64,000 bases of DNA from positions 120,708 through 184,707 of IMG/VR virus record IMGVR_UViG_3300013126_000010. One strand, written 5' to 3'. Each line of letters opens with the position of its first letter. The stretch's first letter is position 1. A program made the translations under genes and the position numbers. Origin of the DNA: a virus. Shown here in pieces: positions 2,860 through 24,967 of this stretch. A model generated the notes under the pieces. That model was not told where the DNA came from. It did no database searches and saw only the letters and a program-made list of their open reading frames with translations.

Positions 2860-2860
2860 C

Positions 2861-2948
2861 AGGATGATATCATTTTGCGGGAACTATGGATTCAAACCAT
2901 ACAAACGCTTCCACTAGCGGTTCTCGATTAGATTGCAGTAATCATCCT
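2861..2948 (-). ncRNA. RNA element A: stem element enclosing a tRNA-Leu-like 3' half
   Basis: Outer stem AGGATGAT/ATCATCCT with the motif TTACTGCAA after the 5' strand, as in eight other elements here. Inside is a 3' half-tRNA: variable-arm-like hairpin CGCT-AGTGGA-AGCG, T-arm TATGG-TTTGAAT-CCATA and 3' acceptor strand GTTCCCG-CA. No matching 5' half (CGGGAAC plus D-arm) is seen nearby. The promoter at 2957-2985 would start transcription at the first stem base. Confidence 0.55.
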
Positions 2949-2956
2949 ACAATTTC

Positions 2957-3745: not shown

Positions 3746-4050
3746 ATAATTTGGTGGATTGTTTTTTCGTTACTGTATAAGTACAATCCACCTAAAACTT
3801 ATTTGCTATTACTTATGCAGTAATAGCAAATCCAGCATAAACGTCATCGTTTGCGTTTAATTTTTTGATTTTTACATCTTTCTCGATGATTCTAAATTAT
3901 TCTTTCTCAACCACGTCGAAAACCTTTCATCCCCATAATAAGAGCATTGTTGCTATAATTAGGATTGGGTTCAGGTGTTATCGCTAACAAGGGAGTTCAA
4001 TGCCCTTATTGTGGAGATGGGCGTATCGAAACGCCGTCCGCAATTTTTAC
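3745..4050 (-). ncRNA. ssrA: Circularly permuted (two-piece) tmRNA, tag ANDDVYAGFAITA
   Basis: tmRNA rescues stalled ribosomes: it is charged with Ala, then templates a degradation tag. On the minus strand the acceptor half comes first, with T-arm GGCGT-TTCGAT-ACGCC and 3' acceptor CATCTCC-A. A ~78-nt intervening sequence follows, closed by pairing of AATAAGGGCATTG with CAATGCTCTTATT. The coding half then starts GGGGATG and has the conserved GGTTTTCGACG. Acceptor strands GGGGATG/CATCTCC pair (one G-U). The tag frame (3813-3854) reads ANDDVYAGFAITA-stop; its stop sits in the loop of an 11-bp stem. This is the known two-piece arrangement of alphaproteobacteria, some betaproteobacteria and cyanobacteria. 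Outer ends are approximate. Confidence 0.85.
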
Positions 4051-4088
4051 TTAAATAATCTTTCAGCCATTTCTAGCAACGAATTCTT

Positions 4089-7096: not shown

Positions 7097-7150
7097 AGGT
7101 TGATGTTTTTCACATTTCAGGTATGATTGTTTATTTGCGGTAATCAACCT
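7097..7150 (-). ncRNA. RNA element I: mini tRNA-like hairpin RNA (loop CCTGAAA)
   Basis: 54 nt. Outer stem AGGTTGA/TCAACCT, motif TTACCGCAA, then a 5-bp/7-nt arm TCATA-CCTGAAA-TGTGA, like an anticodon arm with TGA at positions 34-36 but C at 33. No D- or T-arm. It directly follows element B in the same transcript. Confidence 0.5.
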
Positions 7151-7158
7151 AAATTAGC

Positions 7159-7281
7159 AGGATAGTTTTTATACGTTGCTCTACCAGTCTGAGCTAACTT
7201 CTCCATAGTATTTGGGAGAAGTATGGGATTTGAACCCATGACCAACGGCTTAACAGGCTATTTAATTGCTGTAACTATCCT
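7159..7281 (-). ncRNA. RNA element B: circularly permuted tRNA-Asn(GTT)
   Basis: Outer stem AGGATAG/CTATCCT with motif TTACAGCAA. Inside, the tRNA 3' half comes first (7258 down to 7214): anticodon loop CTGTTAA, T-arm ATGGG-TTCAAAT-CCCAT, acceptor strand CTTCTCC. A ~10-nt linker follows, then the 5' half (7204 down to 7174): GGAGAAG, D-arm AGCTCAGACTGGTAGAGC, ending AACG. Joining AACG to GCCTGTTAAGCCGTTG gives a perfect stem ACGGC/GCCGT and acceptor GGAGAAG/CTTCTCC. The order is that of permuted tRNA genes of red algae and prasinophytes. How the halves are joined is unknown. Confidence 0.75.
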
Positions 7282-7538: not shown

Positions 7539-8999
7539 TTATTTACTGATTTCAATATGATTACCAGCTGTTAGTTTAACAATCTGTGGTTTTGATGCAA
7601 TAAATCTAGTCTTAGTTGAGAATGAGATGTGTTCATACGGACTATCATCAGTTACATTCATTTCACCACCAATCATTATAGTTCCAATCACATCAATAAC
7701 ATGATTTGAAGTAAAATCCCCTCTAAATCTCGTAAACATGTCCCCTAGAAGATGTTTTATTGTATTTGCCTTGTATGTTACTCGTTGATCTGCGGTAATC
7801 CCATACATTGTTGCACCAAATCTTGGTAATCGGAATTTGAATTGGGTATCATCGGGTTGTGGAATCCAGTATGGGTAAACTATTTGCAAGTTTTTCTTTT
7901 CCTGATCATCAAATTCATGAATACCATCACCAAGTAGAGTCGCAGAAACCACAACTATCTTATTTGCCCGTAACAATGCCTTAATGGTGTTTACATTCGC
8001 CGTAGTGGGAATAATAACCTCACTAACTGGGTTATTTGCAGCATATTTAAGAACTGTTTTAGCACCAACGGCATAATCATTGTCTTGATCACCAATTATA
8101 CTAACTGATTTGGTTGGATATTGGTGTGTAACATAATCACCAGCTATCATTCCTTCACCATATAACCCTTCATTCCAATAAAAAGTATAAGTTGATGGTG
8201 TTTTACCCGGTACATTAGTAATCGGCAGTAATGTTGGTACTTTATGTGACTCTGAAAAGTCTTGAATTGGTTGCCAGTTATCAGCAAATCCCCCAACAAT
8301 CATAAATGGTGGATTATTTTTGTAATATTCTTCTAATTGCGATGACCATGTATCAGTTGGACCAGTCAATTTCCATGTATTATATGATATTTTTCTAAAA
8401 TCTGATATAACTTTGTTACCTTGTGAATTATGAATGGTAAAAAATTCTTTTAATTTATCATCAAATGCTGTTTTATCATAATCATTGGTAGAATCTGTGA
8501 TAATGGATACTATATTAACAGAATCTGATGTCACACCTACCAATGGTTGTGCATCCATAGATTTTAAATATTCAATTAGACTAGCAATTTCATTATCATT
8601 ATATGAAAATGTTGGCATAATAGGATTTAATTTTCTACTTGCTGGATCTATTCCCGTTTTTATAACCTTTTTAATGGTTGATTCAGTATATCCTGGTCGT
8701 GATGGTATTTTATGAAACGTATTTTGTAAATATGTTTGAATAGCTTTATCCATGGAATTTCGGTCAATGATGGTTTCTCTACCAACTACGGGGATACCAT
8801 TATATTGTTCTGATAAACTTTTATAATTGATTGGCAATACGATCACATTACCTTCTGGCATACCTTTACCAGATTTTAAATGGCATTCAACACATGCTCG
8901 TTGACCATGTAATCCATTATTATAGATTTGTGACCCAACATTGTCATTAGCCATGACAACACCACTCATTACACTTAATAACATTACGATCTTTTTCAT
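7539..8999 (-). CDS. Secreted cytochrome c-periplasmic binding protein fusion
   Basis: 486 residues. Signal peptide 1-17 (cleavage near VMA-ND). Residues 18-155 form a class I cytochrome c: heme-binding CVECH at 36-40 and an axial Met at about 128 (NPIMPTF). Residues ~158-486 form a type I periplasmic-binding fold like branched-chain amino-acid receptors (GDQDNDYAVGAKTVLKYA). It should sit in the host periplasm and need the host Ccm system for heme attachment. It is the last gene of a three-gene secreted cassette with the multicopper oxidase, so it may pass electrons to or from it or sense a small molecule. Such a fusion is very unusual for a phage. Confidence 0.85.
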   Translation of the reverse strand: MKKIVMLLSVMSGVVMANDNVGSQIYNNGLHGQRACVECHLKSGKGMPEGNVIVLPINYKSLSEQYNGIPVVGRETIIDRNSMDKAIQTYLQNTFHKIPSRPGYTESTIKKVIKTGIDPASRKLNPIMPTFSYNDNEIASLIEYLKSMDAQPLVGVTSDSVNIVSIITDSTNDYDKTAFDDKLKEFFTIHNSQGNKVISDFRKISYNTWKLTGPTDTWSSQLEEYYKNNPPFMIVGGFADNWQPIQDFSESHKVPTLLPITNVPGKTPSTYTFYWNEGLYGEGMIAGDYVTHQYPTKSVSIIGDQDNDYAVGAKTVLKYAANNPVSEVIIPTTANVNTIKALLRANKIVVVSATLLGDGIHEFDDQEKKNLQIVYPYWIPQPDDTQFKFRLPRFGATMYGITADQRVTYKANTIKHLLGDMFTRFRGDFTSNHVIDVIGTIMIGGEMNVTDDSPYEHISFSTKTRFIASKPQIVKLTAGNHIEISK

Positions 9000-9094: not shown

Positions 9095-12000
9095 TTATTT
9101 CGCAACAGTCGGTGAGGTTGGGCTAGAAGGAACACTCGCACCAACTGCGTTTTTAGATTGAACTCTAAACATGTATGTTACATTGTTAGACAATCCTTTA
9201 ACAGTACCAGTTGACACGTTTGGTCCCAACGCAACAATAGTTGATGCATTGGTCCATCCTTTTCCAGCTGTACAGCTTGCGATCTTTGTTGGAGTGCTTG
9301 CAGTACATTTTTGTATTACAAATGTGGTATTGTTGTTTGATGTATCAGTCCATGTTACATCTACTGTATATGGACTACCAACAGTACCTGATACAGCACC
9401 ATTAATTATAGGAGTTGATGGTTTTGCCTTCATATTAACTACTGCAATATTACTAGCTGGACCAGCAGTATTACTTATCAATGGTGTTACTCTGAATGAA
9501 TATGTCACATTTTTAGCTAATGCCATCGTAGACACAAAATTCATGTTATTACCACTACCACTAAAAGTACCAGCTAATGTTGTCCAGTTATTAGTAGTCG
9601 ATGGTGAATATTCAACGGTATAACCAGTTTGCCCTGTTGACGTGTTAGTCCACGTTAAGGTAGTACCATTAACAGTCGTTCCAGATGCTGATGTAATAAC
9701 ACCTGACAAATCGGTTACTGCATTAAGAGTTGACCCAACAATATTTACTGAGTATGATACCGGTGCAGAACTTACACCTTTGCTATCGGTAACGGTTACA
9801 GTAAAGTTAAATGTCATCCCGTATACTGGAGTTCCACTTAAAACACCATTTGCAAATGTCACACCATATGGAACGGTACCTGTCAGATTCCATGTGTATG
9901 GACCTGTTCCACCAACAACACCAATGGTTTGGCTATATGCTGTACCAATTGCACCAGCTGGTAATGTAGCTGTAGTAATTGATGGAGTCAAGTTTTGACC
10001 AATTACTACGGTGTACGATTGTGATGCCACAGATGGCGTTGGATTTGCACTATCTGTTGCAACAATACTAAATGTATACGTTCCTGCAGTAGTAGGTGTG
10101 CCACTAATTACTCCATTGGCAACAGATAACCCTGGTGGAACTGTACCAGTAGTTGACCATGTATATGGTGTAATACCACCGCTTACACTAATTGGTTGAC
10201 TGTACGCTACATTAATATTACCGTTTGGTAACACTGTTGTCGCAATTACTGATTTAGTAATTACAATGGTAAACGCTCTTGCAGATGATTTAACATTTTT
10301 ACTATCAGTAGCAGTGACTGAGAAGTTAAATGTACCTGCTGCAGTAGGTGTTCCGCTAATAATACCATTAGTCAATGTCAACCCATTTGGCAATCCACCA
10401 GTCAATGTGAATGTATATGGACCAGTACCACCACCAGCTGTTACCGTTTGGTTGTAAGCATTACCCATATTACCATTTGGTAACGATGATGTCAATACAC
10501 TCGGAATCACACTTGATGTTCCAACAGTTAAGGTAGACTGAACTGTTGTTCTTTTCACTGGATTCGAATAATCAGAAACAGTTACACTAAATGAATATAT
10601 ACCAACAGCAGTAGGTGTACCACTTAACTTACCCGATGCATTCAATGTCATTCCTGGTGGCAATGCCCCTGCAGATACTGTGAATTTATAAGGAGCAGTA
10701 GGTGTTACAGTGTTAGTCAAACCACCATCAGCAGTGTAAGTTACTGGATTATATGCTACACCCAAAACACCATCAGCTAATGCTGGTGCAGTGATGTTTA
10801 ATGGCATAACCATTACCAATGGACGCATCATATCGTGCTCTTCATGTCCCAACAAGTGACAATGCCAGATATATTCCATACCATAATCAGTTAATGTATT
10901 CAACAATGTCATACCAGCACTATCAGTCATTGTAACCCCCAATGGTGATGCAGGATCTAATGGTCTAATAGAGTTTGGTAATTTCCATGGCAAATATGGT
11001 TGCACTGGTCTTACAGCAATGAATGTATCCAATGCTGGTGACAATCTAATTGTTTCTTTCATACCTTGTTCTTCTGGGTCAATCGGAAAAACAGTGCCAT
11101 CGATTGCAATACGACCAATTAATTGAACATTTACCAAATGGAAGTGCATATAATGTTGGTCAATACCTTGGTGATCAAGTCTCCAAATTTGGGTACCATC
11201 ACCCAATGTACCAACAATCGGATAATTACCAGTACCATCAACAAATGTTGGATCAACAATTTCTGTTGGTGGGTTGAAGAAGCTGTATGGATTAGCTACA
11301 CCAGCTTGTGGCCCAAGATTTGGCAAAGCACCACCCAACAAAGCGTTCATTCTACCATATTCCATGTCCCAGTTCTCGATAATAGCTTTATCTTGAATTG
11401 GTAATACTACATTAGTTGCACTCAACGTATTTGTATTTGGGTCCCATGGTTTAAATGAAAATGATGGGTCTGCCAAATTTGGTTGTTGTTCTGGAATTGT
11501 TTTACCATAAGCAGCACTATATGATGATGTTGGTACCAATGGTGCTTCTTGTGCCGTTTTGTATATTGATGGCCATGATGTTAACAATTTACCCATATTA
11601 AATGGAGCATCAGGTGTTCCATTAGTCATGCCAACCGTTTTAACAGCATCACAGTAATACAAACTCATCGTGTCAGTAATATTTGGATCGCATACATTGA
11701 CTTGCATAATAGTTCTAGTGTTAGGACCATATCCTGCCAACGTAGATGGTGCGCCACCTTGGAATGTATTATCTGGGTTACCTGCATAATAATCATATCG
11801 TTCATCAAAGAATGGGTATGGTGCAGGAGCATCATTATACAATATAACAGTTTTTCCTTTATATTTTGTAAAATCTACCAATGTGTCATGACGTTCCGCA
11901 GGTCCAACAACCAAACCATGTTCTTTTACACTTAGAGTAAAAATAACTCGACGTGATTGTTCATATGTTACTGGTTGAGTTGGTAATGTTTGTGGTAATG

Positions 12001-14374
12001 GTAACCATCCACCTTCATTTGCCAATATAGTAAATTGTGGACCAACACTTGCAGGATCAGGAGCACCACCATTGCGACCATCAGCAGGCCATGTTGCTGG
12101 ATATGCTGGATTCAACATTGCTGGTACCATTTTTACTTCTGCATTTGGTGCTGCCAGTGCAATGGCACCAGAACCAATACCACCATTAGAATCAGTAATA
12201 GTAACAGTAGGAATATCATCATACGCGGGTGATGCAGGTTGAGTAACAACCAAATCAACAATAGTCTGATCTAAAACTGCAGTTGCTACTGGAGTTACTG
12301 CACCAACCCCGTCAATAGATACTGTCGGTGCTGATGTATATCCGCGACCACCATTACTAACAGTGATTCCAGCGATATTTCCATTTGCATCCAATGTTAC
12401 AAACGCAGTTGCACCTGAACCACCACCACCTGTTATCGTAACAGTAGGTGTTGCCAAGTATGCAGGTGTATTAGTTAATGGATCTACTGTTATTGATGAT
12501 ACTATTCCTGAAACCACTGCAGATACTTGAGCAGGAGTACCAATAACGCCATTTTTCCAACCACCATTAAGGGTAACAATAGGATTTGTATATCCTGTTC
12601 CACCTTGAATCAATGATAATCCAATAGGGTCTGCAACATACCAGTTTAATGATAATGTGCGATCATCTGCACCATTCAATACTTTAAGTCTATGTGTATT
12701 AGGAGTTACAGATAGTTTTGGCCATGCTGTTCCATTAACAGTCGCACTATCCATAAATGATTCTGGAGTGCTAGTTGGATTAGTTGTACCCGGAACTTGT
12801 GGTGGCTCATTTGGTGTAGAACCATCTGGATTATACAACAAGTTTGCAATTGGACCAACAATCTGGGTTGTAATTGGAGGATAAATCCATGTATTGTAAT
12901 CCCAGCGACCAACATCATTAACACCACCTATTGACGTTGGGTGTTGGTTAGGCATATAAACATGTGGTAACCACAAATCACCATCCGTTGGGACTGCCGG
13001 TGTAGTTGCTGTAGCAGGATGTGAACCCCATGCCCATGTTGGATCTTGTTGAGCAATTCTAGTAGGATCTACCCATGTTTTATCTTGAATGATCAACGGG
13101 ATACCAATACCATCAGGCATTTTTGCTAATCCTGGGTTACCACCAGAATTGTTGGTACCATTAATCAAGTCATCTTCAACAGGATCTTTTAAAATATAAC
13201 CAGCTGCCATACCATCATACACATTCAATCTGGTAATACCATATGCATGGTCATGATACCACATGAATTTTGCAGACTGTTGGTTAGTGTAGTACATTGT
13301 GGTAGAACCTTGACCTGGATCATTGGTTGCACCAGGAACCGAACATACTAATTGTGCAGCACATACATCAATTGATTGACCTTGAGCATCGAACCACATA
13401 TCTGGAACAAATTTCAGACCAGTAGCACGTTTGTTAGGGTTAGTTTCACCAACTGCTGCGGTCCATTGATGCGGAGTACCATCAGAAATATAAGGTGTTG
13501 CACCACCATGTAAATGCACGGTAATTCTATTTTGAGAATACTGTGGACCAGCTCCCATAACAGTGTCATCAACCGGTAATGGTAAATTACCTGCCACACC
13601 AGTAGGCAAATAGTTGGTAAATTTCACCCTAACTGGTTTATTTTTATCAGCAATGATGTTTGGTCCCAAATAGTTTGGAGCATGTACAGCAAATACCTGA
13701 TTACCCGCTAAATCTTTAATTGGGGTGCTATCTGGATATGTTAATGCAACATGATCAGACACTTTACCTTGTGCTGTTAGCGTTGACATTACTGCAGGAG
13801 TTTCAATTTGAACATATCCACGCAACGTTGTTGGTGATAATGCGCTGTGCATTTTTTCAGTATATTGAACTACTGCAATCTCATAATAATCAGATGCATA
13901 TTCAACACCATCTTGTGGAACAGCTGGGGTTGCAGCACCACCATATGTTGTAGTGTCAGGCACAGCTACAACCAATTCCATGCCATTGGCATTAGCATAT
14001 CCTACTCGTGGCAAATCATCAATGAATTTTTTCAATCCACCAGAAACAATGGGTGCTCCTGTAAGAGGATCTAGTATATATGCTTTCGTTATAGGATCGG
14101 TTGCCAGTGTTGGTTGTGGTGAGTTTGCATAGTTCGGGGTGGTACTGAATTAATCAGGTTGTACTCCAAAAGTAAACTGATTCCCTGCACCAATACCAGA
14201 AGAGAATGTAGGAATATAGGCAGTAGGATAACATGGACCAACACCATATGATTTTTGACCCGGACAGGTTTGCCCATAGCCATTACCACTCCCCGGATTT
14301 TGAAGGACTGCAAATGATGATTGCGACATTGCGACCATCATTGCAGTAGTTAATAATTTATATTTTCGCATCAT
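9095..14374 (-). CDS. Giant secreted multicopper oxidase with Ig-like and FN3 domains, interrupted by one in-frame TAA
   Basis: The frame runs from 14374 (MMRKYKLLTTAMMVAMSQSS, a signal peptide) to 9095, about 1,759 codons, broken only by TAA at 14150-14152 (codon 75). If that stop is real, the rest would need a late start such as TTG at 14035, without a signal peptide. All four copper motifs are present: HLHG (~287), WYHDH (~373), HYMHFH, and HCHLLGHEEHDM, giving type 1, 2 and 3 sites. A Gly-rich repeated insert lies between the cupredoxin domains. The C-terminal third holds four putative Ig domains (SGTPTAAGTFNFSVTATDS type) and two fibronectin III domains. Multicopper oxidases couple oxidation of phenols or metal ions to O2 reduction. 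The substrate cannot be read from sequence. Likely host-derived. Confidence 0.85.
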
Positions 14375-14815: not shown

Positions 14816-14959
14816 AGGATGTATTAATTTTTTGACAGTCGCGTATACCACTTTCGCCACTTACCAGCCACCCGGAGGCTTATGGTCATTAGATGGGACT
14901 TGAACCCACACGTCTTTCGACAACTGTTTTTGATAAATTAAATTTGCTGAAAACATCCT
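14816..14959 (-). ncRNA. RNA element F: circularly permuted tRNA-Leu(CAA)-like
   Basis: 144 nt. Outer stem AGGATGT/ACATCCT, motif TTTCAGCAA. The 3' half comes first: TCAAAAACAGTT (anticodon CAA), variable arm GTC-GAAA-GAC, T-arm GTGGG-TTCAAGT-CCCAT and CTAATGACCA. A linker with an AGCC/GGCT hairpin follows, then the 5' half, with a Leu-type D-arm GCG...CGC and GACTGTC. Joining gives stem ACTGT/ACAGT around loop CTCAAAA, classical for Leu. The acceptor strands (TGGTAAG against CTAATGA) pair imperfectly, so it may be degenerate or have an unusual acceptor. Confidence 0.6.
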
Positions 14960-21234: not shown

Positions 21235-21256
21235 GATATTACCTTTATAATTAAAC

Positions 21257-21309
21257 AGGATACTTTTTATTTTCGCCAATGAAATTTTTTAATTTGCTGA
21301 ATGTATCCT
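21257..21309 (-). ncRNA. RNA element E: mini tRNA-like hairpin RNA
   Basis: 53 nt. Outer stem AGGATAC/GTATCCT, motif ATTCAGCAA, then TTTC-ATTGGC-GAAA (6-nt loop). Nearly identical inside to element D but with a different, still perfectly paired outer stem, which is strong evidence for selected RNA structure. It starts 5 nt after the CCA of tRNA-Ser(TGA). Confidence 0.5.
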
Positions 21310-21314
21310 AAAGT

Positions 21315-22996: not shown

Positions 22997-23056
22997 AGGA
23001 TAGCTTTTACGGTTTTGATTAGAAGTCAAATGTATTAAGCTTGCTGAAACTATCCT
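22997..23056 (-). ncRNA. RNA element C: mini tRNA-like RNA with Arg(TCT) anticodon arm
   Basis: 60 nt. Outer stem AGGATAG/CTATCCT, motif TTTCAGCAA, then TTTGA-CTTCTAA-TCAAA, a perfect 5-bp/7-nt anticodon arm with TCT and U33. No D- or T-arm: a 10-nt connector (ACCGTAAAAG) leads to the 3' strand. It is as small as armless mitochondrial tRNAs of nematodes. Lies downstream of element D in one transcript. Confidence 0.55.
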
Positions 23057-23097: not shown

Positions 23098-23150
23098 AGG
23101 ATGTATTTATTTTCGCCAAATGAAATCTTTTAATTTGCTGTAAACATCCT
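23098..23150 (-). ncRNA. RNA element D: mini tRNA-like RNA (possible Gln TTG loop)
   Basis: 53 nt. Outer stem AGGATGT/ACATCCT, motif TTACAGCAA, then TTTC-ATTTGGC-GAAA. Reading U33 gives anticodon TTG. The promoter at 23158-23186 starts transcription at its first base, so it is the first RNA of the transcript D, hairpin, C. Confidence 0.5.
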
Positions 23151-23451: not shown

Positions 23452-23508
23452 CTGGATCACGTTTTTCAAATTTACTGTTTGATTGTTTAGATTGCTGAAA
23501 TGATCCAA
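23452..23508 (-). ncRNA. RNA element H: mini tRNA-like hairpin RNA (loop CAGTAAA)
   Basis: 57 nt. Outer stem TGGATCA/TGATCCA, motif TTTCAGCAA, arm TCAAA-CAGTAAA-TTTGA. Positions 34-36 would be GTA but position 33 is A. Six-nt 3' connector, no D- or T-arm. Confidence 0.5.
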
Positions 23509-24805: not shown

Positions 24806-24918
24806 GGGTAGCAAATATGTTTTACCGCTAAACTACCATAGTGACCAACTCTATGGCTGGGATTCGAACCCAGGACTTTTCTTTACGATAGAAATTATTA
24901 AAATTGCTGAAACTACCC
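24806..24918 (-). ncRNA. RNA element G: circularly permuted tRNA-Thr(CGT)
   Basis: 113 nt. Outer stem GGGTAG/CTACCC, motif TTTCAGCAA. The 3' half comes first: anticodon arm TTTCT-ATCGTAA-AGAAA, T-arm CTGGG-TTCGAAT-CCCAG, then CCATAGA. An ~8-nt linker follows (GTTGGTCA), then the 5' half CTATGGTA and D-arm GTTT-AGCGGTA-AAAC. Acceptor CTATGG/CCATAG pairs perfectly. The break lies between D-arm and anticodon arm. Confidence 0.7.
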
Positions 24919-24938
24919 AAGGTCATTTCATTAAATTA

Positions 24939-24967
24939 ATTATAGCACATGTTTTATGATGTTGCAA
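24939..24967 (-). promoter_or_regulatory. Sigma70-type promoter for RNA element G
   Basis: -35 TTGCAA (24962-24967), 17 bp, -10 TATAAT (24939-24944), TGC extension. Start expected about 14 bases before element G. Confidence 0.8.

What the first reader, a model, noticed from the sequence alone, without database searches (positions are those of the whole stretch)
24806..24918. Permuted tRNA-Thr(CGT), broken between D-arm and anticodon arm
Same outer frame as element B but the break is at a different tRNA position: the whole anticodon arm is in the leading half and the trailing half ends after the D-arm. Acceptor and T-arm are canonical. It has its own strong promoter. Different break sites argue for repeated independent permutation.
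Basis: partly seen in the sequence, partly recalled or inferred. Interest (0 to 1): 0.85.

Follow-up and report, generated by a model that had tools for sequence, protein, structure and literature searches.

The report
Phage RNA mimicking a closed tRNA
The "permuted tRNA gene" is really there, but it is better read as a small phage RNA that copies the shape of a tRNA with its amino-acid end sealed, one of an undescribed family of phage RNAs that display anticodon loops on a common stem, perhaps as decoys against host enzymes that cut tRNAs.

Summary
Minus strand 24918-24806 carries, in order, an outer-stem strand, an anticodon arm (loop AUCGUAA, anticodon CGU), a T-arm, an acceptor hairpin, a D-arm and the outer-stem partner. 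Rotated, it is called tRNA-Thr(CGT). A strong predicted promoter precedes it.

The interpretation changes. The outer frame (6-8 bp stem, then UUWCAGCAA) recurs 7-9 times in the window (0.145 expected) and in over 100 viral contigs, in phages of Synechococcus, Vibrio and Enterococcus. It carries either a full permuted tRNA fold or just one anticodon-like hairpin. In 38 relatives all five helices covary and the break stays at 26/27. The acceptor loop is not a linker: its complementarity to the 5' leader is kept by compensatory changes. The anticodon differs freely (12 types in 38), while U33 and A37 are near-invariant. The variable region is 4 nt even with Tyr, Ser or Leu anticodons, which does not fit decoding tRNAs.

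Best reading: a closed, non-charging tRNA mimic displaying an anticodon loop, most likely a decoy for host anticodon nucleases. The anatomy is strongly supported; the function is inferred. It resembles YrlA Y RNAs but fails that family's score and lacks a phage Ro60 gene. Nothing was shown at the bench.

The parts
24806..24918 (-). the finding: framed permuted tRNA-like RNA, anticodon CGU at 24887-24885
   Evidence: R2 match 116.6 bits E 1.8e-25 (this sequence is in the model)
24913..24918 (-). outer stem, 5' strand GGGTAG
   Evidence: pairs with 24806-24811; helix 1
24806..24811 (-). outer stem, 3' strand CTACCC, followed by TG
24904..24912 (-). conserved frame motif TTTCAGCAA
   Evidence: with a closing stem in 32 of 78 places for this motif, 1 of about 245 for ten changed motifs; related variants TT[AT]CCGCAA 3 of 12, TT[CG]CAGCAA 4 of 18
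24878..24894 (-). anticodon stem-loop mimic TTTCT-ATCGTAA-AGAAA
   Evidence: all five stem pairs have double changes; U33 37/38, A37 37/38
24857..24873 (-). T-arm CTGGG-TTCGAAT-CCCAG
24836..24856 (-). closed acceptor hairpin CCATAG-AGTTGGTCA-CTATGG (no CCA)
   Evidence: helix 4: six of six pairs with double changes
24842..24846 (-). loop segment GGTCA, complementary to the leader
24921..24925 (-). leader segment TGACC, partner of the acceptor loop
24819..24833 (-). D-arm GTTT-AGCGGTA-AAAC
   Evidence: helix 5
24939..24967 (-). promoter-like site TTGCAA-17-TATAAT with TG
   Evidence: 10 of 12; prediction only
7160..7280 (-). element B: same frame, Asn-like loop CTGTTAA, break inside the anticodon stem
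   Evidence: YrlA model 39.0 bits, E 4.8e-5
14817..14958 (-). frame with a degenerate permuted tRNA-like payload (Leu-like D-arm)
   Evidence: R2 E 4.8e-6
22998..23055 (-). short frame with anticodon arm TTTGA-CTTCTAA-TCAAA (UCU)
   Evidence: R1 E 4.8e-9 (in the model)
23099..23149 (-). short frame, predicted promoter directly upstream (23185-23158)
23454..23506 (-). short frame, hairpin TCAAA-CAGTAAA-TTTGA
7098..7149 (-). short frame directly after element B (motif TTACCGCAA)
21256..21310 (-). short frame (motif ATTCAGCAA); match to Dictyostelium Class I RNA model, 32.1 bits E 0.041
   Evidence: R1 E 2.9e-7
2860..2949 (-). frame with motif TTACTGCAA and a T-arm-like hairpin
   Evidence: R1 E 0.013 (weak)

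Best explanation
The element is a small phage RNA of a family not in Rfam 15. A constant frame (6-8 bp terminal stem plus UUWCAGCAA) holds an interchangeable, tRNA-derived payload. In this class the payload is a complete tRNA fold in permuted order whose acceptor end is sealed by a short loop, and that loop probably pairs with the RNA's own 5' leader. Without an open CCA end it should not be charged. What it displays is an anticodon loop with conserved U33 and A37 and an exchangeable triplet. Most likely it acts as a decoy or competitive inhibitor for enzymes that grip the tRNA body and anticodon loop, above all host anticodon nucleases used in anti-phage defence; the exchangeable triplet would match different nucleases. 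Shown computationally: anatomy, conservation, covariation, breadth of the family, anticodon exchange. Inferred: expression as a stable RNA, lack of charging, the decoy role.
For: Frame: 7 in the window against 0.145 in shuffles; motif with closing stem 32/78 against 1 of about 245 for ten changed motifs. Class: 97.5% of cells paired, 133 double-change cells, 0/500 shuffles; the outer stem and acceptor hairpin were selection criteria, the anticodon stem was not. Leader-loop complement: variants TGACC/GGTCA, TACCTA/TAGGTA (BUCT-ZZ01), ATACCA/TGGTAT (L063, L211), ATACTAA/TTGGTAT (Vibrio D482), TGACTA/TAGTCA (L221), ATCCCA/TGGGAT (L217); true pairing unequalled by the 719 re-pairings. Anticodon exchange: 12 types in 38; U33 and A37 37/38; variable region always 4 nt although 22 of 38 have Tyr, Ser or Leu anticodons; L038 and L023 differ only in the triplet (GGA, ACG) over the compared core. 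Short members: 63 of 132 best hairpins have 7-nt loops (11 expected), 41 with U33 and purine 37 (1.5 expected). Precedents: YrlA proposed as competitive inhibitor of an anticodon nuclease (PMC7790460); phage tRNA-Tyr proposed as decoy or supplement against Septu (PMC13096335).
Against: No expression, binding or protection data. The minimum-free-energy fold of this sequence is not the cloverleaf (-26.4 against -22.4 kcal/mol), and only 15 of 38 class members show 80% or more of its pairs in theirs. With disjoint pairs the triplet changes no faster than the unpaired linker (4/39 against 10/117), so relaxed constraint, not proven diversifying selection, is what the data establish. No anticodon nuclease was matched to any triplet. 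The leader-loop helix is only 5-8 pairs, supported by about six variant types, and I found none in Enterococcus phage EF1 (L208).
Confidence: 0.5

Rival explanations
1. It is a functional permuted tRNA gene: RNase P and 3' processing open the acceptor loop, CCA is added, and the two pieces stay paired (as in two-piece tmRNA) or the frame ends are ligated, giving a decoding tRNA.
For: Rotated sequences are called tRNA in 37 of 38; D- and T-arms keep the tRNA pattern; a permuted tmRNA lies in the same window (RF04321, 104.7 bits) and others in relatives; some phages with frames carry T4-type RNA ligase (4 of 11).
Against: No CCA in the loop; loops as short as 4 nt in other classes and a UUCG-capped one (L165); loop kept complementary to the leader; anticodon exchange with a fixed 4-nt variable region; frames carrying only an anticodon hairpin; no T4-type RNA ligase or RtcB match in this record.
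Confidence: 0.17
2. It is a Y RNA (YrlA type): the frame binds Ro60 supplied by the host, and the tRNA-like domain tethers or gates an effector such as PNPase.
For: Same layout as YrlA (terminal stem, T-arm, closed acceptor hairpin, D-arm); YrlA model matches at element B (39.0 bits, E 4.8e-5) and weakly at the finding (25.9 bits).
Against: Below the gathering score of 69; no TROVE (Ro60) gene in any of the 16 phage records searched; the YrlA consensus has no UUWCAGCAA; short members have no tRNA-like domain.
Confidence: 0.15
3. It binds the translation machinery or tRNA-modifying enzymes: the anticodon loop occupies a ribosomal site or is a substrate for enzymes such as MiaA (A36-A37-A38 in most members), shifting host translation.
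For: U33, A37 and mostly A38 conserved; G34 30/38 and A36 31/38.
Against: Free exchange of the triplet, including the T36 of the finding; no evidence for ribosome binding.
Confidence: 0.12

Closest known systems
YrlA, tRNA-mimicking bacterial Y RNA (RF02553)
   Same: terminal stem, T-arm, acceptor hairpin closed by a loop, D-arm, in the same permuted order
   Different: different frame sequence, an added anticodon stem-loop with exchangeable triplet, leader-loop helix, no Ro60 gene found in the phages, ASL-only relatives
Circularly permuted tRNA genes (red algae, archaea; from established knowledge)
   Same: order of tRNA parts
   Different: no second helix as in a bulge-helix-bulge, bacterial virus, acceptor loop without CCA and conserved for pairing, no ligase matched in this record
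Permuted (two-piece) tmRNA (RF04321)
   Same: permuted order; found in the same tRNA arrays
   Different: tmRNA has a long intervening segment and a tag reading frame; here a loop of about 9 nt and no tag frame
Dictyostelium Class I RNAs (RF01414; PMC7919456)
   Same: terminal stem of about 6 bp, adjacent conserved motif ending in CAGCAA-like sequence, variable interior, about 60 nt, UG after the 3' strand, many copies per genome
   Different: eukaryotic, reported only in dictyostelids, matches below the gathering score (31.6-33.8 bits against 41.5), no tRNA-like payload known to me
Phage tRNAs that counter tRNA-cleaving defences (Septu, PARIS)
   Same: phage tRNA-like RNA in a tRNA array; decoy role proposed for phage tRNA-Tyr (PMC13096335)
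   Different: those are ordinary decoding tRNAs

Membership tests
YrlA / bacterial Y RNA | reaches the YrlA gathering score (69 bits) | tested here: not met
   25.9 bits at the finding, 39.0 at element B
YrlA / bacterial Y RNA | encoded with a Ro60 (TROVE) gene | tested here: not met
   no PF05731 match in 16 records, including complete BUCT-ZZ01 and G000, itself possibly a fragment
YrlA / bacterial Y RNA | tRNA-like domain with closed acceptor between the halves of a terminal stem | tested here: met
YrlA / bacterial Y RNA | binds Ro60 | not testable with these tools
   needs biochemistry
functional (permuted) tRNA | cloverleaf after rotation | tested here: met
   37 of 38 called by ARAGORN
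functional (permuted) tRNA | body matches anticodon identity (long variable arm with Tyr, Ser, Leu anticodons) | tested here: not met
   4-nt variable region in all 38, 22 of them with such anticodons
functional (permuted) tRNA | 3' CCA encoded or addable at an open acceptor end | tested here: inconclusive
   no CCA in the loop; opening by RNase P not testable here
functional (permuted) tRNA | bulge-helix-bulge splice site at the outer termini | tested here: not met
   no second helix follows the outer stem in the consensus fold
functional (permuted) tRNA | charged with an amino acid | not testable with these tools
   needs acid-gel Northern blot
Dictyostelium Class I RNA | reaches the RF01414 gathering score (41.5 bits) | tested here: not met
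   14.9 bits at the finding; 32.1, 33.8, 31.6 at other frames
Dictyostelium Class I RNA | terminal stem with adjacent 11-nt motif, end CUGU | tested here: met
   frame layout against the published description (PMC7919456); compared by eye
permuted tmRNA | matches RF04321 | tested here: not met
   only 3813-4070 matches

The most novel reading that the evidence does not exclude
The frame defines a phage-wide RNA display scaffold, not in Rfam, that presents exchangeable anticodon loops (alone, with a T-arm, or within a sealed tRNA fold) as a library of decoys against anticodon nucleases; and the same scaffold design, by descent or convergence, is that of the Class I RNAs of social amoebas.
Probability: 0.3. 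Interest if true: 0.95.

Novelty: new variant of a known kind. Interest (0 to 1): 0.82.

Why it matters
Large phages carry dozens of tRNA genes for debated reasons. A family of sealed tRNA mimics and bare anticodon hairpins among them, with exchangeable triplets, would be direct evidence that part of the array serves conflict with tRNA-cutting defences rather than decoding. It makes a testable prediction for each triplet and explains genes that annotation now leaves blank or calls pseudo-tRNA.

Tried and rejected
Y RNA membership: score and Ro60 tests failed. T4 stable RNAs rnaC and rnaD: no frame on inspection and no model match in T4. Splicing of a permuted tRNA: no bulge-helix-bulge layout, no RtcB or T4-type ligase match in this record. 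Plain thermodynamics: MFE does not give the cloverleaf for this sequence. Diversifying selection on the triplet: strong in all-pairs counts (13 of 38 differences in 3 columns among pairs at most 3% apart), but with disjoint pairs 4 of 45 (p 0.04) and no faster than the linker, so not claimed. Bacterial chromosomes: a short-frame pattern matched 2 stretches in GTDB genomes, not followed up, against at least 119 in viral contigs with a slightly looser pattern. Literature searches found no description of the family, but subscription journals are mostly missing.

Full report
What is there. The finding lies exactly at 24806-24918 on the minus strand. Reading 5' to 3': outer stem GGGTAG, motif TTTCAGCAA, an A/T-rich linker, anticodon arm TTTCT-ATCGTAA-AGAAA, four bases, T-arm CTGGG-TTCGAAT-CCCAG, acceptor hairpin CCATAG-AGTTGGTCA-CTATGG, TA, D-arm, CTACCC. 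Joining the D-arm end to the anticodon arm gives a molecule that ARAGORN calls tRNA-Thr(cgt). A structural scan found this order at two T-arms only, the finding and element B. A sigma-70-like site with TATAAT and an extended -10 ends 21 bases upstream of the frame.

The frame is a family. The outer stem plus TTWCAGCAA recurs on the same strand: seven strict copies in the window against 0.145 in dinucleotide shuffles, and two looser ones. Scans of viral contigs with two patterns gave 77 and at least 119 stretches. In loci that were not fetched by the stem pattern, TTWCAGCAA outside T-arm elements is closed by a matching stem in 32 of 78 places, against 1 of about 245 for ten changed motifs; the variants TT[AT]CCGCAA (3 of 12) and TT[CG]CAGCAA (4 of 18) also show it. 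A covariance model of the short frames matches 15 of 18 phage records tried and one of the finding's class matches 16; T4 and Vibrio phage Va1 have none. Many of these records supplied training sequences or were chosen because they hold the motif, so this is not a survey. Among isolates the class is in Synechococcus phage BUCT-ZZ01 (77% identity, unannotated), Vibrio phage D482 and Enterococcus phage EF1. A short-frame pattern in GTDB genomes found only two stretches.

The class of the finding. Thirty-eight elements, the finding included, were aligned. Five helices are 97.5% paired with 133 double-change cells, against 34 in shuffles. The outer stem and acceptor hairpin were used to pick elements, so their pairing is partly built in; the anticodon stem was not, and all five of its pairs show double changes. 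RNAalifold gives the cloverleaf-like fold from the alignment, with the anticodon arm in a shifted register. The break is between positions 26 and 27 throughout. Element B belongs to another class, with the break inside the anticodon stem. So break sites are fixed per class; nothing shows them moving.

Why not a tRNA for translation. First, the acceptor end is sealed: loops of about 6-9 nt without CCA in this class, 4 nt in others, and one UUCG-capped hairpin. Second, the loop is complementary to the leader just upstream of the frame, and the complement is kept through changes: TGACC/GGTCA here, TACCTA/TAGGTA in BUCT-ZZ01, ATACCA/TGGTAT in L063 and L211, ATACTAA/TTGGTAT in Vibrio D482, TGACTA/TAGTCA in L221, ATCCCA/TGGGAT in L217. 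Among all 720 assignments of six leaders to six loops, no other reaches the true one. Third, the anticodon is exchangeable: 12 triplets in 38, while U33 and A37 are each 37/38; all have a 4-nt variable region, although 22 carry Tyr, Ser or Leu anticodons, whose bacterial tRNAs have long variable arms (established knowledge). L038 and L023 differ over the compared core only in the triplet. Fourth, the same frame often carries just a hairpin: of 132 unique short elements, 63 have a 7-nt loop (11 expected) and 41 of these have U33 and a purine 37 (1.5 expected). These loops include CUUUUAA, the loop of tRNA-Lys, cut by PrrC (established knowledge).

How it most likely works. The conserved part is a frame plus an anticodon loop; in this class the whole L-shape is rebuilt with the charging end closed. 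That suits a molecule that binds what tRNA-recognising enzymes bind, without entering translation. A decoy against anticodon nucleases is the most economical role in a phage, and the free triplet fits an arms race. This is inference. I could not prove diversifying selection: with independent pairs the triplet changes about as fast as the linker. What is solid is that it is unconstrained beside frozen neighbours.

Known relatives. YrlA Y RNAs share the layout, and the YrlA model touches both elements, but scores are far below its threshold and no TROVE gene was found in 16 phage records. A role of YrlA as competitive inhibitor of an anticodon nuclease has been suggested (PMC7790460). The Class I RNAs of Dictyostelium share the frame design (PMC7919456), and their model's best phage matches fall on frames, below its threshold; chance or convergence cannot be excluded.

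Limits. All evidence is comparative. The contigs are mostly metagenomic and many are fragments. The single-sequence fold prefers another structure by 4 kcal/mol, so the tertiary contacts and leader pairing would have to hold the tRNA-like form.

Noticed in passing
window 3813-4070 (-): Permuted tmRNA (RF04321, 104.7 bits) in the same region; ARAGORN also reports tmRNA* in BUCT-ZZ01 (L009 19962-20380) and L090.
   Followed up: partly
window 21256-21310 (-); L067 3620-3671 (-); L105 7348-7400 (+): The Rfam model of Dictyostelium Class I RNA matches phage frames (31.6-33.8 bits, E 0.016-0.057), below its gathering score; published Class I features (terminal stem, adjacent motif, end CUGU) fit the phage frame.
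   Followed up: partly
L187 11501 (-), L190 5787 (-), L026 7699 (+) and similar: A third payload of about 97-100 nt: anticodon arm plus T-arm without acceptor or D-arm, in the same frame.
   Followed up: no
L028 297, L022 4045, L037 4614, L048 1660, L210: A subclass whose acceptor loop holds ACAGAGG or TAGAGG, resembling a strand of a hairpin in its own leader; may be another leader-loop interaction.
   Followed up: no
window 9095-14035 (-) and 7539-8999 (-): A 1646-aa ORF that looks like a multicopper oxidase and a 486-aa ORF with a cytochrome c-like CxxCH motif; unusual cargo for a phage. Judged by eye only.
   Followed up: no
MK387337.2 (L209 about 390-500): Vibrio phage Va1 has an element-B-like permuted tRNA-like sequence with an outer stem but without the TTWCAGCAA motif, unannotated.
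   Followed up: no
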